Assembly (NCBI GenBank): GCA_020081605.1
Contig: JAHREC010000011.1
Coordinates: 4,898,001-4,962,000, forward strand
DNA length: 64,000 nucleotides
Direction: 5' to 3'
DNA from: Albifimbria verrucaria
Taxonomy: Eukaryota > Ascomycota > Sordariomycetes > Hypocreales > Stachybotryaceae
A program made the position numbers and the translations under genes. Positions within the stretch are counted from its first letter, which is position 1, and each line of letters starts with the position of its first letter. Under the pieces are notes generated by a model, which was given only the letters and a program-made list of their open reading frames with translations, ran no database searches and was not told where the DNA came from. Shown in pieces: positions 19,268-29,903 of the stretch.

Positions 19268-21017
19268 AGGAGAAATCATAATGGCATTTGAGCGAGTTTT
19301 GTTGACTATATCCTAAAATAACCAAAAAGTTGCTTCCATCCTGCTTTCTCAGACATCGTTGCGGAGCCCAAAAGATGTGACCTGTGTCACGTAAGTTAGA
19401 GCTTATATGACAGTAAATCGTTCATTGAGAGAACAAATCTCATCATATTTATGAATGGCAAAAATTGAAGGAATAGTTATGTTATAAGCGTCGGGTATAG
19501 GATACTTTTCATTCCTTGGCCAGTCATAAGAAATTTTGTTTTGACAAATTCATTCCTCTTCCAAGTCTTTGGCATTCTAATTACGCTCACAGGTATTCAT
19601 GGCTTATTAAATTACATGAAATCTCCACTTAAGCAAGGATGCGAGTTCATTGATGTATTTTTAATCAAGATGGCGAGATAATGTTCGCAATCTGCAACAG
19701 CCATGGTAGTTCTGAGCATTTAGGCAAGTCAATTCTCTCCCATATACAACCAATAACTCCCAAGTATTGATTTTATTTGTGATACGCCCTCCGTGCTTTT
19801 GTAGTTCGAAGGTAATATTTCTGCCTTTGGTCCACAAACATGAGGTTTCCGGTTTGCAACATAGACAATTTGACTGACGTGATCAGGAATCTAGTTTTCC
19901 ACGATTTGCCTATCCCATAAGGAATTAGCGGGAAAGCTCCATCGACTAATTTAAGGTCAGAGACGATGCACAATGCTACTGGGTCATGCTTGATGCTTAG
20001 GATCTTAAGCAGGGTGGCCATATTTCATATTTCGAAAACTAAATGGACCAACTTGAAGTACAAAGCCAGTTTGTTTACTACCTACAATTTTCCAGAATGG
20101 ACGGTGAAACACTTGAGGAGCATAGTTCATGGATTAGTGAGAAGTATGTAACTACTCAAAGGCTCTCACATTCCATGAGTTCTTAGAGACTCTCAATATC
20201 AGTCTGTGATGCTTTATTCAGGAAGCATTGACACAGAAGGATTCAAAAGTCATACAATATAGTAATTTTTCAGTGATTCTCTTCTCATTATTTTTCTCTT
20301 GCCTATTTCCACGATTGACTCTGACTACGCAGAAGAAATATTAGAACTATAAACCACTTACGAACCAGCCACTAGCGTCCTGTCTCTAGACTTTGAAGAT
20401 TTATGGTACCCTAGTGAACCTTCGACGTGAGAAAAGAGCTCTTGAACCCAAGCTGCACCGATCAAATGGCGTGGCTGGTAATTAAATTAATTGACGATAA
20501 GCCAAAAGTGTGCCAATTCTTGCACTCGGTGCATTATGTTGCATCCAGCAGCACGTGTCTCGTATAGCTGCCAAATGACGTCGCTTCATTCATGTTATCC
20601 GGCTTTGTTTGGCGACCCTTAGATTCCCCGCGTCTTATGCCCAACCATAGTAACCTCTAGCTGCGCTCTCATTGGAATATGGATTCTGGTCCAGGTCGAT
20701 CTGACCATTCCTTGCCTAGGTTACCTCCTCACGATGAGGGGACAGTCTGCAGCTACGAGACGCCGGCTAGCGCCATCCAGTTGCGATTGGCCGTCTATCA
20801 TGCGAATATGACGAGACGGTCCATAGTAGTGCGGGCAAGCCGGCTGGGCAACAATTTCCTCAGTCCGAAAGGTTAGGGAGAGAGGCGGCGCAGGCCAAGA
20901 TCCGAACGCTCAAGATATAACTGAAGCCCACCTGCTTGATTCACTCAGTTGAACCATTACATTTTCTCCTTGACGTTGCATTAAAACTTGGCATTCACAC
21001 GACAGAGATTGCGCATC
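19268..21017. other. Intergenic, no gene seen
   Basis: 3' flank of the CipC-like gene and promoter of the oxidoreductase. One AGTCCGA (reverse complement of TCGGACT) lies at 20872-20878, 140 bp before the ATG of that gene. No coding region recognised. Confidence 0.4.
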
Positions 21018-22340
21018 ATGTCCTCCTCCACTCTCAAACGTTATGTCATTGTCGGCATGGGCATCCGGTCTGCCTTCTATTACCAGAGCATTATCCAAGA
21101 CTTTAAGGATATCGCTGTACTAGTTGGCATCTGCGACACAAATCAAACTCGCATGGATGCTGCTAATGATCGCATCGTTGAGTTAGGTGGCAAAAGGTCA
21201 ACACGTACAAAGCCGAGAACTTTGACGAAATGGTCAGAAATGAGAAGGCGGATGTTGTAATTGTGACTACTATCGACCTCTTCCACCACGTCTACTGTAT
21301 TCGCGCCATGGAATTGGGGTGTGACGCCATCACCGAGAAGCCAATGACCATTGATGAAGTGAAGCTTCAGGAGATGATTGATGCTGAGAAGCGAACTGGA
21401 AAGCACGTTCGGGTTCTATTCAATTACCGATACTCCCCCACCACACGAAGGTCCGCGAGGTGATTGAGTCGGGGTCATTGGTGAGATTGCCACTGTGCAT
21501 ATGGACTGGATATTGGATTGTGCCCATGGGTCCGACTTCATGCGTCGCTGGCATAGAACAAAAGACACAAGTGGCGGCATTCAGATGCATAAGTCCATAC
21601 ACCACTTTGATCTTATTCACTTCTGGCTCAACACTGAACCCGAGCTTGTCTACTGCCTCGGCGACCTTCGTTTCTACGGTAAAGAAAATGCATTGAGACG
21701 TGGCGAAACCAACTTGGAAGACCGCTATCTCAACAGTGAAGCAGCTAAAGACGACCCTTTTGCCATCCACATCGACAAAAATGCACAGCTAAAGAAGCTC
21801 TACCTTGAAGCCGAACATGAGGATGGCTACATACGGGACAGAAACTGCTTTGCTGATGGAATCACAATCGAAGACAACCTCTCTATGATCATCAAGTACA
21901 AAAATCGTACAGTAATGACGTATAATACCTACGCATATGCACCGTGGGAAGGCTATAGATGCGTTTTTAATGGAAGCAAAGGACGTGTAGAAGTCAATGT
22001 CGTTGAGAGTGGCTACTCTGCCGGAGGGGAAGCAGTCACCCATGAGAACCTCACGGATTTGGAAAAGAACTACATTCAAGGAGGCGTTGAACAAACCAAA
22101 ATTGTCGTATATCCTCTGTTCAAAGAGCCTTACGTAGTGGAGGTCGAGAAGGGTGTCGGCGGCCATGGAGGAGGAGACCCTGTGCTACTTAAAGACGTGC
22201 TTGTCGGCGATACCGAGGACAAATTTAAGCGCGCCGCGTACATCAGAGATGGTGGAAATGCTGTTCTGGTTGGAGTCGGCGCAAATAAGTCGATGGAAAC
22301 GGGGCTACCCATCAAAGTGCAGGAGTTGGTTAATTGGTAA
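21018..22340 (+). CDS. Gfo/Idh/MocA-family NAD(P)-dependent oxidoreductase
   Basis: About 441 residues, intronless. An N-terminal Rossmann domain opens with YVIVGMGIRS and has the family signature EKP in AITEKPMT. The C-terminal domain follows, with HMDWILDCAHGSDFMRRWH and the HKSIHHFDL stretch that supplies the usual active-site His. Members oxidise or reduce sugars, inositols and related polyols, or act on modified intermediates. The precise substrate is unknown. Three one-base losses break the frame: in AAAAGG at 21192-21197, the C5 run 21435-21439 and the G4 run 21471-21474. Each repair restores conserved sequence, for example YRYSPHH. It converges on the peptide precursor gene and could be part of that cluster, but nothing proves it. 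Confidence 0.85.
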
Positions 22341-22967: not shown

Positions 22968-23554
22968 CTATCTGCCCCAACCCGCCTGGTTGTTGGTAGA
23001 ATCAACTGAGTTCTCACGCTTTCCCCAACCTGCCTGATTGTTTGTAGAGTCAACGGAGTTCTCTCTCTTCCCCAGCCGGCCTGGTTGTTGGTAGAGTCAA
23101 CGGAGTTCTCACGTCTTCCCCAGCCAGCTTGGTTATTGGTAGAGTCGACCGAGTTCTCTCTCTTCCCCAACCTGCTTGGTTGTTGGTAGAGTCAACGGAG
23201 TTCTCACGCTTTCCCAACCTGCCTGGTTGTTTGTAGAGTCAACTGAGTTCTCTCGCTTTCCCCAGCCGGCCTGGTTGTTGGTAGAATCAACTTCGTTTAC
23301 TCGTCTTCCCCAACCCGCCTGGTTATTCGTCGAGTCAACTGCATTCTCACGTTTTCCCCAGCCAGCTTGGTTGTTTGTGGAATCAACCGAGTTCTCTCGC
23401 TTTCCCATCCAGCTTGATTGTTGGTCGAGTCGATTTCGTTCGCACGCTTTCCCCAGCCGGCTTGGTTGTTGGTGGAATCGACGTTCTTGACCGGCGCAGC
23501 AACCGCGACACCAAAGACTGCGAGAAGGACAGGAAGGTATGTAGAGGCTTTCAT
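22968..23554 (-). CDS. Secreted Kex2-processed repeat-peptide precursor (dikaritin-like RiPP candidate)
   Basis: About 196 residues when single-base losses are allowed for. A signal peptide from the ATG at 23554 (MKASTYLPVLLAVFGVAVAA) is followed directly by eleven repeats of 16 residues. Each carries VDSTNNQAGWG (first Val replaced by Ile in copy 2), and copies 1-10 end in KR or RR. The spacer after each dibasic site is mostly ENS, with ANE, ENA and VNE variants. The last copy ends GWGR and stop. This is the layout of fungal Kex2-cleaved precursors such as those of ustiloxin, phomopsin and epichloecyclins. The candidate mature core is about 14 residues with Trp as its only aromatic. Single bases are missing at 23404-23406, 23213-23215, near 23160 and near 23066, seen by comparing copies. 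It faces three UstYa-type genes. The product and activity are unknown. Confidence 0.85.
22971..23485 (-). repeat. Eleven-copy 48-bp coding tandem repeat
   Basis: Repeat unit of 48 bp (47 bp where a base is lost) inside the precursor gene. Copies differ mainly at synonymous positions and in the three-residue spacer, while the NNQAGWG segment is invariant in all eleven. Confidence 0.95.
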
Positions 23555-23732
23555 GATTGAGGAGTTTATCGGAGTGAAACGATCTTGCGGTTGATAAAGC
23601 AAAACCCAGTTCTCCCACACAATAAGCTATTTGCAACCCAACATATACTCCTTTTAAGACCACTGACTATCGGCAGTTGCGGGGTTCAATCCTGAACCAA
23701 GCAGGAATGTATAGGTACCTCTAAGCATTCCT

Positions 23733-23927
23733 TCGGACTGGCACGTTACACTCGGCGACGCTCATAACACTGGTCAATAGTCTTTGATACCTATTGCTGA
23801 TGCAGTCACAAGTGCGGAGATGCCATGGTGGCGGATCCGCCTGCAAGGATCTCGGACTAAAAGCTCGGACTAGGAATTATGACCTATTGTAGTTGTCGAA
23901 CACTGGTGGGGGTATTGGGCAGTCCGA
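23733..23927. promoter_or_regulatory. Cluster of four TCGGACT sites
   Basis: TCGGACT occurs at 23733-23739, 23852-23858 and 23865-23871, and inverted at 23921-23927. The two middle copies are part of a direct repeat CTCGGACTA spaced by 4 bp. Such 7-mers are expected about eight times by chance on both strands of the whole window, so four in 200 bp is dense. CGG-containing repeats suit a Zn2Cys6 regulator, but this is inference. Confidence 0.45.
23830..23841. promoter_or_regulatory. Perfect 12-bp palindrome GGCGGATCCGCC
   Basis: Contains inverted CGG/CCG half-sites with a 2-bp spacer, in the middle of the divergent promoter and flanked by the TCGGACT sites. Inverted CGG triplets are typical Zn2Cys6 dimer targets. 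Binding is not shown. Confidence 0.4.
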
Positions 23928-24325
23928 GATGGTGGGACCTAACAGATAGACCTTCTTCTTTCACTGGCCAACATGACATGCGTGCGCATATGATAGTTCG
24001 TATACCGGGACTGCTGAGGAAAGGAGCGGTGTATGGTATTCTTGCTAGAGCCCCGTGATGCACAGTGCGCCTTTGGACTATATCGATTTCGAGTTATTTA
24101 CCACTCGAAGCTACGCTGACATGGTACTATGCATATGGAAACACATCCAAAGATGGCTTAGTAGATGCCTAGCTTATCGTTGTTTCTCCTCCAAACGAAT
24201 ACTACCAACATTCAATCACATTACCTAGCATCGAACAAGCTTAACATTACTTTCTTGTGAGACTCTCGAGAAGGTTACGAGAACCAGGTCCTCTCAACGC
24301 ATATGATCACTGAATTCGTTTGGTC

Positions 24326-25234
24326 ATGTCATTCAAAAATCTCGACAAAGTCCTGGACCAGGAGAGCCTGCTATCAGCAGAGCAAAAAGAGGAACATGAC
24401 TTTACTCGTAAAGCACCCACTCGACTCAGATGGGGAGTTCTCCTTCCATGTTCAATTGCACTAAATTTTGGTTTGCTTTTGATCATCACTTTCATATGGT
24501 TTTCTTCCAAGCAGAGAAGTGAGCACGCATATATACCAGGTGAAATATTCTGTGCGTATCACTAAATTCCTGTTTCAATTCCTATGCTGACTTACTTTAG
24601 CTCCTGCCCAGGCAGCCGTTGAATATAAAACAGTGGTGTTTAATGGAGGGCTTCGCGGTGACAAGACAGAGTACCAGGGCTCGTCGGAGGAAGTCAACTC
24701 CAAATGGGAGGAATTGTACAATGGTGAGGCTTTGAACCTAGTGCGACATCAAGCTGCGAAGCTTTACTGATCCCAATCTTAACCCCAACAGATATAGGCA
24801 TGTCACAAATCTCTGCCGACGCAGCATCTCGCCTACCAAATGCAACAACGCCTATTGCTGGCGATCCAGACCATTACATGGTGGAGCTCGACGTTTTTCA
24901 TCAGCTCCATTGCCTTAATCTCATGCGAAAGCTAGTCTATCCTAATGTATTTCATCTAGATCTGATTTCAGACTCGGAAGAAGCACAGGATAACATCTAT
25001 CACATGGAGCATTGCTATGATCAGCTGAGACAAGCCCTCCAGTGTGCTTCTGATGTTAGTACAATCTACTGGGAGTGGAGCTTGGAGAAGAAGAAGATGT
25101 TTGGCAATCTTCGTACAACACATACATGCAGGAATTTCGAAAAGATCAAGGAATGGGCTATGGATCACCGCTTAAAGCAAGATTTTGACTGGTTCCAGCC
25201 GGTGGAGGGTGCTCCGATACGGAAATCTGGTTAA
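24326..25234 (+). CDS. UstYa-type (DUF3328) membrane oxidase-like protein
   Basis: Three exons (24326-24539, 24601-24723, 24792-25234), about 259 residues, frame intact. A short cytoplasmic tail is followed by one membrane helix at about residues 37-59 (WGVLLPCSIALNFGLLLIIT). The lumenal domain has the defining paired motifs HQLHC (149-153) and HMEHC (183-187), the second followed by YDQLRQALQC. UstYa/UstYb-type proteins drive oxidative cyclisation or cross-linking of ribosomal peptides in ustiloxin, asperipin and phomopsin pathways and probably bind metal through these His/Cys motifs. It is the first gene rightward of the divergent promoter opposite the repeat precursor, so the precursor is the likely substrate. 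The preferred start at 24326 gives MSFKNLDKVL. Confidence 0.88.
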
Positions 25235-25866
25235 AAATGTACATTATTCTTAATAAACAACCATGATATATCAAATGAAGCAACCTTTCAGGATTGTGGC
25301 AGCGATATTGTCTTGAAGTTTCACAATGGCCTGGATCAAGCTTAGGGATATTTGCCATATCATCAATAGCCACAGAATGAATCGAAACAAAAGCGCTTAG
25401 GATTTCGTAAGTCCTGCATTGCATTGCATTGCCTTGTTTTTCTGAGAACCTATGCAACGTTACAATATTTCTATAGCATAGTATATCACACCCAAGAAAA
25501 AAAGCCAGATGTAGGATTTTTGCATAGGTATGAGTCGCCCTTGGCCATGTCTAGTTTTGGGAGAGACCGACGTCGTAGGTAAGCGAATGTAACGGTTCCA
25601 ATCCTCCGATCCTGCAAGGGCATGATAGACTAGATCTTCGCCATACAACGCTGCATCCTAAAGAACAGGGATGATCGATAGACCAGTGGGTCGCATCTCA
25701 TCGACTGCTTCATACAGTGCAGGAGGGAGGAGTTCAAACGGTGCAGGCATCGGAGGCCGATCCAGCAACGCCATCATATCCGGCTATTCCACCACACGTC
25801 GCTAATCTCATATTTCCTTGAACTTCTACTTTTACGTTATTCTTAGCAGGTAAATCCATCTCCAAT
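25235..25866. other. Intergenic between UstYa-type genes
   Basis: 3' flank of the first and promoter of the second HxxHC gene. An inverted repeat TCGGAGGCCGA at 25750-25760 contains CGG and CCG half-sites about 110 bp before the next ATG. No gene seen. Confidence 0.35.
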
Positions 25867-26563
25867 ATGGGCCACGTTACTCGCGAATACTCCAAAGTTA
25901 CCCAAGATGATGTGGACGAAGAGCCTTCACAAGAGATTTATCGAGAAACTCGCCGGTCATGGCAATTTCAACTGTCATGCTTGATTGCAGCCTTCATATT
26001 TGGTTCGATCATCACAGCGTCGCTATTCGCATCGTTCAACATAGCTCAGGTCACCCAAACGGCCCCTGCACAAGCACCAAATCGCAACTTGCCTGAATTC
26101 CGCGAGGGAACAGATGAAAAGACTGGACTTCCCTTAGTTGGTCCAATGGCGACTGTGGCAACTCAGCAGAAGATGCATTGGCGCTCGGCTGTCGTTATAG
26201 CATCGTGCTTCACGCTTGGTTACCCAAGAATTGCCTGACCGACGATGATGTAGAGGACGAAAAGCTCATGTACGAAGGTCGAACCTGGCCCTATCAGAAA
26301 GACGACGGTACGAACCTGACAATGTCGGAACTGCATAAAGGGATTTCCATCATTTCACCACTTTGTTCGATTGGCATGTCACCCATTGTATGTATGTTTG
26401 GAAGAGGATTCACCGAGCGATGCTTGATGCGGACAGGAAGATTGACTCCTACACGGCCAATATCCATCACACGAACCATTGTGTGAACATGATTGGAGGC
26501 AATGTGGGTGGCATGAAGGACTCGGGAACCAAAATCTTCGTCAAGTATCCAGTTTGTGCTTAG
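25867..26563 (+). CDS. Divergent HxxHC membrane protein, UstYa-related
   Basis: About 232 residues, intronless. An acidic N-terminal tail precedes one membrane helix at about residues 34-58 (QLSCLIAAFIFGSIITASLF). After two one-base losses are allowed for (GG at 26157-26158; around 26356-26361) the lumenal part reads GNSAEDALALGCRYSIVLHA, then CLTDDDVEDEKLMYEG, then HVTHC and HTNHC. The GNS..EA..GC opening and the HxxHC...RIHRA...HxxHC layout mark a fungal family related to, but distinct from, standard UstYa. It is often seen near peptide clusters. The spacing of the two motifs (about 30 residues) matches the neighbouring DUF3328 proteins. A role in peptide oxidation is inferred from motifs and location. 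Confidence 0.75.
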
Positions 26564-27125
26564 CATTTCCTGTATGGATGAGAATAGCTGTTAGATCTTT
26601 GCCGGTATATTATTCAGTGCCGTTGTAAGCTGTTGGTTTCTTGCGTTAGTACAAGAAAATGAACCAGAGACTCTGTATGCCACCGTCTCACCCGCGTCGT
26701 CACCTTGCGGTTTGACTCCTTCAAGTTGCGCCATAATATCACACGATGACCCAAACGATTAGGTCTTCTGATTCGTATTTGCTATAAACCGCTGACATCC
26801 TACGTGTCTTTGGGTATGGTGTGCTGTCAACAAAGCCCCGCGACTTGGCTAGATCTGGCATGTCGCAGCGAAGGATTCGTGTCGATCAATAAATTCGGGC
26901 CTTACCTTAAATCGCGATGTACAGATACTTGGGCGCCACCACGTTGCATGCACTAGGCTGAAAGCTTGGGGTGCAATTGCGAGCGTACTGTGGTTACTAT
27001 CCATCTCGCATCCTGCTCTGCGCGTGAGACTTCTCGTCTACCTATCCAATACTGGCACTTGTTCGGTTTTCACAGCAATTCCCAGTTATGAGCGTCTTCC
27101 TTTAAACAGAAGCGCTATAATCGAA
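26564..27125. other. Intergenic between second and third UstYa-type genes
   Basis: Likely terminator of the second and promoter of the third gene. No TCGGACT site and no coding region seen. Confidence 0.35.
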
Positions 27126-27943
27126 ATGCTGTCTCTATCGAAATCCAAGACTCCATATCAGGCGTTATCACCGTCAGATGCTGAATTGGAGGCTGTTCCA
27201 TTCAATGAGTCAGATACGCTCAAAGGGATCCATGGCCGCCATGAAAAACCAAGTCTTATGAGAGTGCCAAAGGCGATTCACCTTTTCATTATTGGCACGG
27301 AGTTGTTGGTAGCCGGGGTGTTGGCTTTCGCATTCTTCATTCTCAGTCAAAAACACTTGCAATCGGCAAAGCATGTGTCGCTGGATGGCCTGAGAGAATT
27401 AGGGGCTACAACACAACAATGAAGTTTCACAATAACTCGGAGCTTTTACGAGACTCTGATATGGCCAACGATTACTGGAGAAACCTCCTCGGCGGTGGTG
27501 GAGTTATTTCAGTAAACACAGAGTGGGCGTTGGCTCAAGGGCTGCAGCAGTCAGCGACATCCCCGACGGATCCCAATCAAAGCATCTATCAAGTGGATGT
27601 TTTTCATGCTTTGCACTGCTTAGTGAGTTTTGATGCTGTGGCTTTTACCGTGAAACAAGGCTAAGTGTATCGAAAGAATTCGCTTCGACTCAACCTGATG
27701 AGTGCTAATAAGCCTCCGTTCGATGAGAAACATATGCTTCATTGCCTTGACTACATCAGACACCAGCTGTTGTGTCATCCTGACCTTACGCTTGTCAAAA
27801 CTAACGATCTAGACGAGTTTGTACTAACTGGCTCACATCAATGCCGAGATTACGGGGCTATATTAGATTGGGTGCATCGTCACCGCTGGGTAGAATTCCC
27901 CGATTGGCTCAAGACCAAGAGCCAGCAGCAGAAGGGAGATTAA
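27126..27943 (+). CDS. UstYa-type (DUF3328) membrane oxidase-like protein, third copy
   Basis: Two exons with an intron at 27623-27676 (54 bp, branch-like CTAAG), about 254 residues. It has a cytoplasmic tail, one membrane helix at about residues 51-74 (IHLFIIGTELLVAGVLAFAF), and then the family phrases WRNLLGGGG, YQVDVFHALHC and, after the splice, HMLHCLDYIRHQLLC. The C-terminus has HQCRDYGAILDWVHRHRW, as in UstYa homologues. A one-base loss, best placed in the G4 run 27402-27405, separates the N-terminal part from the catalytic part. Restoring it gives YNTTMKFHNNSELL. Same strand and spacing as the other two, so it is probably co-regulated with them. The start at 27126 (MLSLSKSKTP) is the ATG next to conserved sequence. 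Confidence 0.85.
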
Positions 27944-28168
27944 TAAAACGTTGGCTTGGTACAAAGGATAGATGTAAATGTAAGGCAAAAATACTAGCTA
28001 AAACTCTAATAGATCGTGTAGCTGAATGCCTACCGGTTACAAATCGAGCCTTCTCTACTAAGTTTATCCGAAGATGTAGACCAGGTCATTGCATGTTTTG
28101 AAGAAATAAGTTGAATTATTCTAAATCTATCAGATCGCTTCTATCGCAATGGAAAAAATAATGCATGT

Positions 28169-29903
28169 CTAGAGGTGGGTAGTGCCTGCAGTTGAGCCAA
28201 GCGGCTTCCTCACCACAACATTGCGATCCCAGCCGTCGATCTCATCGTACACTGTTTCGCGGACCAACTCGTATCTGCCAATCTTGGGTAAGATGACAGC
28301 CCAAATAACCCAGTAAACACCTCCGCCAAGAATGATGGCAATTCCCACAACACAGTGGATCCAGTACGGGAGACTCTCGTACACGCTGTTGTTGGCATCA
28401 GGGGGCGAATGGGGCCACAACGAGGTAGATGTTGCTGAGGAGGAAGAATACGACGACGGGGAGTGTCGCCTTGAAGGCAGGGTTCCAGTTCCACTCCTGG
28501 CGGTGGAGGTATAGGTGGAGCAGACCTGCAGCCACGAAAACGTTGACGATGGAGAGTGGGTAAGAGATTAAGCTGCGCAAAGGAATTAGCATTTAATTCG
28601 GGTTTCGTTTTTCTGTTGAGGAACTTACTTGAGGATGAAGTTGTATGCATCGCCCGGAGGAGGGGCCAAGATGACAATGATGCAAATGAGCCAGTGCTCA
28701 AACAAGCCAGCCAGGGGCGCGTTGAAGGGCCTGTTGCTGGCCCAGAAGCGGGAAAATGGCAGAATGCCTTCACGTCCAAGCTCCTGGACGAGACGTCCCT
28801 GAGAGAAAATAACTGATAGAACGTTACCAAAGGCGGAAAGCGCCACGAAGACGGACAGAGCTCGCTCAGCCTTCTCGCCCCAGACGTTGCGGAAAAGGGA
28901 TGCGGCAACAAGTCGCTTGGATGCAAGAATCTCTTCCTTAGGCACACCGGCGAAATAGGCGATGTTGGCGAGCATGTAGAGGATAGCGACGGACACGAGC
29001 GCCACGGGGCGGCGATCTTGAGGGTACGAACGGGTCTCCTGGTCTCGCTGAGTGCGTAGTTGGCGTTGCTGTAGCCGATGTAGCTCCAGATGACGTTGTA
29101 CAAGGCCATTACAACACCGTAAGAACTGTTTGTGGTACCCTCAAAGGCATTGGTGAAGTTGTTGGGCTTCTCGTCAATTTTGAGGTGGCCGCCAAGGGCA
29201 ATAAAACCGGCGAGGATGATGATGAGAAGGATGCCGATCTTGAGAATTCCAAGGAAGTTCTGTAGTCGCAGACCCCACTTCAGGGCAGTTCCGTGGATAA
29301 TGAAGGCGACCGTGATGCAGGCCAAACCAATGGCACGCTGGTTCCAGCGGTCGACCTCAACCTGTGCCGCGTGGAGGATGTACTCGCCAAAGACGACGGA
29401 GTTACCAGATGCCCAACCGAGAAGAATGACGTATCCAGCATAGAGTCCGGTGACGAGAAGCTTGGGCTTTCGGTAAACGTATTCCAGGTAGTTCTTCTCA
29501 CCACCATTCTTGGGAAGACCAACACCAAACTCCAGGTAGACGGCGCAACCGGCGGCGGCGATGACGAAACCGAACACCCACATGAAAAGCGCCAAACCAA
29601 CACTTCCGGAAAGAGCCAGGATCGAGGCCGGTGTTGCGAAGACACCTGTGCCAATCATTCGGTTGAAGATCAACATGGACGCGCCCAGAACACCAATCTG
29701 TCTCTTGTTCTCCCGTGCCACCTCCAGACGGCCTGGTGAAAAACTAATTAGCAACCATCTCAAGATGTGTGGAGCGGTCAACTATCCGCAGCATAGGAGT
29801 AGTACATACCAACATCGCTGTCTGTGTCTCCTGCGGTATGCAGAGCATTGTCCTTGCCTACCTCCCCTACAGGGGAGTGGCCGGCCTCCTCGTGCAGAAC
29901 CAT
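28169..29903 (-). CDS. Amino-acid permease, LAT/MUP1-like (methionine-permease type)
   Basis: Plasma-membrane APC transporter with about twelve helices. Three exons: introns at 29733-29809 (77 bp) and 28573-28628 (56 bp) join DSDVG to RLEVARENKRQIG and NFIL to NLISYPLSIVNVF. Signature stretches are LIFNRMIGTGVFATP, GLPKNGGEKNYLEYVYRKPK, SYIGYSNANYALSETRRPVR and VFVALSAFGNVLSVIFSQ, all like yeast Mup1 and fungal relatives. One-base losses occur in the G4 run 29006-29009 and the G5 run 28401-28405 (plus-strand view). Repair gives KIAAPVALVSVAIL and APFAPPDANNS. It sits tail to tail with the third UstYa-type gene and may simply border the peptide cluster. Methionine as substrate is by family only. 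Confidence 0.87.

What the first reader, a model, noticed from the sequence alone, without database searches (positions are those of the whole stretch)
22968..27943. Compact dikaritin-like RiPP cluster with an unrecognised core peptide
Seen: a signal-peptide precursor with eleven dibasic-bounded repeats, divergent from three membrane proteins with paired HxxHC motifs. Known: UstYa/UstYb-type proteins plus a Kex2-processed repeat precursor define the ustiloxin, phomopsin, asperipin and epichloecyclin pathways. Inferred: this cluster makes a new cyclic or cross-linked peptide from the VDSTNNQAGWG core. I do not recognise the core from any described member.
Basis: partly seen in the sequence, partly recalled or inferred. 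Interest (0 to 1): 0.88.

Follow-up and report, generated by a model that had tools for sequence, protein, structure and literature searches.

The report
Fungal repeat-peptide cluster with copper-type oxidases
A fungus carries a gene for a secreted protein built of eleven near-identical short peptides next to three genes for a known kind of copper peptide-modifying enzyme, so it probably makes a chemically modified small peptide; it is a new member of a known kind of pathway, with relatives in Fusarium and other fungi.

Summary
The finding is real and mostly read correctly. On the minus strand (23554-22968) lie a signal peptide and eleven copies of [V/I]DSTNNQAGW, each later copy preceded by KR or RR. 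Divergent from it are three genes with an N-terminal membrane helix and paired HxxHC motifs. One correction: in this assembly the array is not one open frame; four of ten copy spacings are 47, not 48. Frame steps also split HSP70 genes and a neighbouring permease, and the cores differ almost only at silent sites, so assembly error is the likelier cause.

The core is not an orphan. Relatives with units such as DILYNNQAGWG occur in Fusarium, [Torrubiella] and Beauveria, and one with VDSTDNQAGWG on a metagenome contig. Ten further precursor contigs are undecided.

Best explanation: a Kex2-processed, UstYa/DUF3328-modified fungal RiPP of dikaritin kind, with no tyrosinase or S41 peptidase match in the window. 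The core has no tyrosine; tryptophan is its only aromatic residue. What the enzymes do to it is unproven.

The parts
22968..23554 (-). Precursor gene: start codon 23554-23552, signal peptide, eleven repeat units, last stop 22968-22970. In three frames in this assembly.
   Evidence: Six-frame reading and core positions; spacings 48 or 47
22977..23482 (-). Eleven copies of [V/I]DSTNNQAGW separated by (G)KR/RR-xN-x spacers
23495..23554 (-). Signal-peptide-like start MKASTYLPVLLAVFGVAVAA (end judged by eye)
   Evidence: hydrophobic maximum 2.93 over 11 residues
24326..25234 (+). G1: intact UstYa/DUF3328 gene, introns 24552-24600 and 24724-24791; HQLHC at 24899, HMEHC at 25001
   Evidence: relatives
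25867..26563 (+). G2: divergent HxxHC gene, HVTHC at 26375 and HTNHC at 26468 in one frame piece; membrane helix in another piece
   Evidence: (E 0.0092, under the cut-off)
27126..27943 (+). G3: UstYa/DUF3328 gene in pieces; HALHC at 27605, HMLHC at 27731; an intron-like GTGAGT...AG stretch between them, seen by eye only

Best explanation
A compact fungal RiPP cluster of the Kex2-repeat plus UstYa/DUF3328 (dikaritin) kind. The precursor enters the secretory path by its signal peptide. Kex2 cuts after each KR or RR, and trimming leaves about eleven copies of an 11-14-residue peptide ending in VDSTNNQAGWG. Three membrane-anchored HxxHC enzymes in the lumen then oxidise the peptide at a two-copper site, by cross-link, hydroxylation or both. 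Shown by sequence: signal-like start, repeats, dibasic sites, selection on the peptide, three HxxHC genes, linkage of precursor and G1 relatives elsewhere. Inferred: cutting, copper, the modification itself, and that the genes are whole in the living fungus. Trp, the only aromatic residue of this core, is the most likely residue to be modified (speculative).
For: Eleven cores under strong selection at the residue level; KR/RR before 10 of 10 later copies; three paired HxxHC genes within 4.5 kb. Precursor relatives (17 repeat proteins) share contig length with G1 relatives in 4 cases, one with neighbouring locus tags F66182_8877 and F66182_8878. G1 is the only close relative of that enzyme in this genome: 82% identity over residues 116-262 of P0021, next best place 38%. 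The DUF3328 enzyme CctR is a two-copper, O2-using membrane enzyme (PMC12435403). A model of the G1 relative P0021 puts its two motifs on two helices.
Against: The array and G2 are not in one frame in this assembly. G2 is below the PF11807 cut-off. For 10 of 14 precursor relatives on contigs of 4 kb or more, no listed G1 relative has that contig length. The core has no Tyr, the residue joined in ustiloxin, phomopsin and asperipin-2a, and Trp is no commoner in repeat proteins with DUF3328 neighbours (20.5%) than without (24.5%) (PMC7329392). No product is known. UniRef names one relative (P0008) 'Mating factor alpha'.
Confidence: 0.8

Rival explanations
1. The array makes an unmodified linear secreted peptide, a pheromone or hormone, and the UstYa genes are neighbours by chance or act on something else.
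For: Many Kex2 repeat proteins have no DUF3328 neighbour (6120 of 7878, PMC7329392); UniRef names relative P0008 'Mating factor alpha'; the core has no Tyr.
Against: Four linked cases of precursor and G1 relatives. Four CYRPGQGCW matches within 530 bases at C8:4603612-4604139 look like a separate pheromone array (17 matches in all, reversed-pattern control 13, so only the cluster is telling; the likeness to pheromones is recalled). No Pfam family over its cut-off in ten relatives. PMC7329392 reports that almost all repeat proteins annotated as mating factors lack DUF3328 neighbours.
Confidence: 0.1
2. A decayed cluster: the frame steps in the array and in G2 are real and no product is made.
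For: Four one-base spacing steps in about 0.5 kb of array and three frame pieces in G2; this is more per kilobase than in the HSP70 genes.
Against: HSP70 matches overlap in different frames with continuous profile positions at five places in 4 of 8 loci; the permease at 28213-29781 steps from PF13520 position 225 to 226 with no room for an intron. Cores keep their residues although silent sites are near saturation, so real breaks would have to be recent. G1 is intact.
Confidence: 0.1

Closest known systems
Dikaritins: ustiloxin, phomopsin, asperipin-2a pathways (UstYa/UstYb)
   Same: Secreted repeat precursor with Kex2 sites beside several DUF3328 genes with paired HxxHC (PMC12048977 passages).
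   Different: Core without Tyr; no tyrosinase or S41 peptidase match in the window; core sequence different; product unknown.
Hypocrealean repeat precursors with the unit DILYNNQAGWG (P0001-P0016)
   Same: Shared NNQAGWG end, similar signal peptide, linkage to relatives of G1 in 4 cases.
   Different: VDST in place of DILY before the shared end; eleven units here, 1 to 7 there; G1 lies in a sister clade.
P0018, a metagenome repeat protein with VDSTDNQAGWGRRQNT
   Same: Nearly the same core and spacer.
   Different: Known only from an 868-base contig, so no neighbours can be seen.
CctR and other DUF3328 enzymes of the cyclochlorotine pathway (PMC12435403)
   Same: Membrane helix followed by HxxHC(x)nHxxHC.
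   Different: Acts on a non-ribosomal peptide; hydroxylation shown there, reaction unknown here.
Fungal alpha-pheromone precursors
   Same: Secreted Kex2 repeat precursor (background in PMC6339444, passages).
   Different: Different core; a pheromone-like array lies elsewhere in this genome; DUF3328 genes alongside here.

Membership tests
Kex2-processed repeat proteins (KEPs) | Signal peptide followed by tandem repeats | tested here: met
   Signal-like start by hydrophobicity only, no predictor run; eleven cores; tandem repeat
Kex2-processed repeat proteins (KEPs) | Dibasic Kex2 sites between repeats | tested here: met
   KR or RR before 10 of 10 later copies, each in its own frame
Kex2-processed repeat proteins (KEPs) | Repeats in one open reading frame | tested here: inconclusive
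   Three frames in this assembly; frame steps also in HSP70 genes and the permease
Dikaritins | DUF3328/UstYa genes beside the precursor | tested here: met
   PF11807 over cut-off for G1 and G3, under it for G2
Dikaritins | Paired HxxHC motifs | tested here: met
   Three pairs
Dikaritins | Tyrosinase gene (in the older definition; later relaxed, PMC12048977 passages) | tested here: not met
   69 PF00264 matches in the genome, 0 in the window
Dikaritins | Peptidase or transporter gene (older definition; not in all known clusters) | tested here: inconclusive
   One PF03572 match in the genome, not in the window; amino-acid permease next to G3 and MFS genes further off, link unknown
Dikaritins | Tyr-linked ether ring (ustiloxin, phomopsin, asperipin-2a) | tested here: not met
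   No Tyr in any of the eleven cores
Dikaritins | Cyclised or otherwise oxidised product | not testable with these tools
   Needs mass spectrometry
Alpha-pheromone precursors | Cys/Trp pheromone core (recalled) | tested here: not met
   Core has no Cys; such an array lies at C8:4603612-4604139

The most novel reading that the evidence does not exclude
A hypocrealean RiPP family in which DUF3328 copper enzymes join or oxidise a tryptophan instead of a tyrosine. GW is kept in all eleven window cores and follows 54 of 56 front halves in the relatives (the two others are a non-repeat stretch and a broken unit), while the Tyr position is Thr in the VDST type. Enzyme and core would have diverged together into two sister types.
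Probability: 0.25. Interest if true: 0.65.

Novelty: new member of a known kind. Interest (0 to 1): 0.42.

Why it matters
It would add a peptide family with two natural core types, and perhaps matching enzyme clades, to a class with few known products, and it offers a Tyr-free substrate for DUF3328 copper enzymes, whose chemistry is only now being worked out. It gives exact masses to look for and named Fusarium genes for comparison.

Tried and rejected
Chance repeats: rejected. A second copy of the core elsewhere: 12 exact matches of a DNA pattern for NNQAGW, 11 in the array; the twelfth (C8:359765) reads TNSANNQAGWEAF without repeats. Searches of the genome with P0001 (4 matches) and P0018 (6 matches) hit only this array. 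In one search, of 20 hits, the animal proteins P0017 (Capitella) and P0020 (Lingula), with GWGKR repeats, and P0019, without repeats, were dropped before counting. The unit count picked units by their W, so the invariance of GW there is built in; one search picked them by the front half instead. Relatives in viral contigs: 39 pattern stretches, none confirmed. Fold comparison with solved structures: 78 matches at E 10 or below, none at 0.001 or below; sequence search: best E 0.89; NCBIfam: no match for four proteins. A strict pheromone pattern: no match; a looser one gave 17 matches against 13 for its reversed control, with one cluster of four. Papers: core strings in 0 papers; five shorter strings in 21 papers, of which the 20 listed have unrelated titles and were not opened. 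Four broader searches and one on DUF3328 in Fusarium brought no paper whose listing names this core. PMC7099791, PMC6339444, PMC12048977 and PMC9632046: passages only. Supplements were not available, so these precursors may already be in the survey tables.

Full report
Setting. The window is part of a 48.4-Mb genome in 41 contigs (G000, contig C8, 4898001-4962000). The best relatives of G1 are from Conoideocrella (68%), Cladobotryum (66%) and Hirsutella (66%); Conoideocrella is in Hypocreales. The fungus is therefore probably hypocrealean, which is inference and not an identification.

Precursor. The minus strand from 23554 codes for a signal-like start and eleven copies of [V/I]DSTNNQAGW, mostly in units like KRENSVDSTNNQAGWG. 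The array is a 48-base tandem repeat. Silent sites of the cores are near saturation (pS 0.73) with almost no change of residue (pN 0.014; 55 pairs). Of 39 substitutions against the majority core 1 changes a residue; random placement gives 28.2 on average and never fewer than 19 in 10,000 runs. Selection keeps the peptide.

Frame steps. Six of ten spacings are 48 bases and four are 47, so the cores lie in three frames. G2 lies in three frame pieces; an intron at its first change is not ruled out. Unrelated genes of this assembly show the same: among 22 HSP70 matches in 8 places, five pairs overlap in different frames with continuous profile positions, in four of the places (C8:3626 kb twice, C10:5393 kb, C15:4866 kb, C36:776 kb). 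The permease at 28213-29781 passes from PF13520 position 225 to 226 at the same base, in two frames. The GH127 gene is weaker evidence: its catalytic and middle domains end and begin 44 bases apart in different frames, so a short intron is possible. I take assembly error as likelier than decay. The array has more steps per kilobase than the HSP70 genes, and only reads can settle it.

Enzymes. Three HxxHC pairs lie in 24251-27960 (six motifs; shuffled mean 0.2). G1 is intact with two introns and a clear PF11807 member. G3 matches in two pieces, one over the cut-off. G2 matches weakly (E 0.0092, under the cut-off); its motif pair resembles one in L036 of the same genome. PF11807 has 35 matches genome-wide, a lower bound. 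Within the genome the Conoideocrella relative of G1 hits G1 at 82% identity over its last 147 residues and the next place at 38%.

Relatives. The first protein search gave three metagenome proteins; a profile of these with the window piece gave 20 hits, of which 17 are repeat proteins of this type (P0001-P0016, P0018; sequences). Five bear species names: Fusarium sp. NRRL 66182, F. austroafricanum, F. oxysporum f. sp. vasinfectum, [Torrubiella] hemipterigena and Beauveria mimosiformis. Sixteen carry DIL-type units (P0014 is itself broken; P0015 and P0016 have DILYF variants). P0018, on an 868-base contig, carries VDSTDNQAGWGRRQNT. Over 29 unit strings, counted within each protein, the position before NN is Y in 25, T in 3 (all P0018) and C in 1. 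Picked by their front half, 54 of 56 stretches are followed by GW; the others are a non-repeat stretch in P0001 and a broken unit in P0014.

Linkage. In Fusarium sp. NRRL 66182 the precursor is F66182_8877 and the G1 relative F66182_8878, both with contig length 60605. Equal longest-contig lengths occur for F. austroafricanum (136486), F. oxysporum (6138274) and a 7740-base contig. That is 4 of the 14 precursor relatives on contigs of 4 kb or more, and 4 of 17 in all. For the other ten, no G1 relative of that contig length is among the 120 shown of 121, which does not prove absence. Equal length is a proxy; the contigs themselves could not be read.

Tree. With G1 and 33 of the 120 listed relatives, G1 falls in a clade of nine with Conoideocrella, Cladobotryum, Hirsutella, three Trichoderma, Clonostachys and Cercophora (98/95). 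The four precursor-linked relatives fall in the sister clade of fifteen (98/97); the two join at 99/99. The output flags long branches, Clonostachys with Cercophora among them. That enzyme and core type diverged together is a suggestion from one VDST cluster and four linked DILY cases.

Mechanism. PMC12435403 (parts 1 and 2 of 3 read) shows the DUF3328 enzyme CctR to be a membrane-bound dimer with a two-copper site at HxxHC(x)nHxxHC, using O2. A model of P0021 from 45 of the 120 listed relatives (mean pLDDT 78.5, pTM 0.64) puts its motifs (residues 153-157 and 187-191) on two helices. PMC7329392 (abstract, section 7, part 1 of section 6) reports DUF3328 neighbours for 1758 of 7878 repeat proteins; 65.6% of those contain Tyr against 38.2% of the rest, while Trp is not enriched (20.5% against 24.5%). 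That last figure speaks against a general Trp rule, though one type there (P-3) has Trp and some DUF3328 neighbours. Which residue is changed here, and whether a ring forms, is unknown.

Pheromone reading. UniRef calls P0008 'Mating factor alpha'. Against it: a cluster of four CYRPGQGCW matches lies at C8:4603612-4604139 (pheromone likeness recalled), and no Pfam family passes its cut-off in ten relatives.

Missing parts. Tyrosinase (69 genome matches) and S41 peptidase (1) have no match in the window.

Other clusters. A scan of 20 stretches around other UstYa genes found dibasic repeat arrays in five, so the genome holds at least six such pairings. The weak match C33:1701994 was not fetched.

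Verdict. A real and probably working RiPP cluster of a known kind, with a core that the searched paper texts do not contain.

Noticed in passing
L018 4006 (+), L020 6742 (+), L025 6853 (-), L026 4814 (-), L032 6878 (-), positions along the strand read: Five other repeat arrays with dibasic sites near UstYa genes of this genome, with units such as SETYLGYVNNTDAEVA, DAAWVFTGGNV, GAKAKGNGRKNG, VIVADGF and GDGHLGINSDASESSYD.
   Followed up: partly
L036 3229 and 3328 (-): A second HxxHC pair resembling G2 (NWEYHLRHC and HTEHC), perhaps a divergent branch of the family.
   Followed up: no
G000:C8:4603612-4604139: Four CYRPGQGCW matches within 530 bases, a pheromone-like array.
   Followed up: no
window 28213-29781 (-) and 20988-22340 (+): An amino-acid permease and a Gfo/Idh/MocA oxidoreductase flank the cluster; both are in frame pieces; whether they belong to it is unknown.
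   Followed up: partly
G000:C8:3626 kb, C10:5393 kb, C15:4866 kb, C36:776 kb: HSP70 genes split by frame steps, pointing to one-base errors across this assembly.
   Followed up: partly
P0017 and P0020: Animal proteins (Capitella, Lingula) with GWGKR repeats resemble the unit end; probably convergent neuropeptide-type precursors.
   Followed up: no
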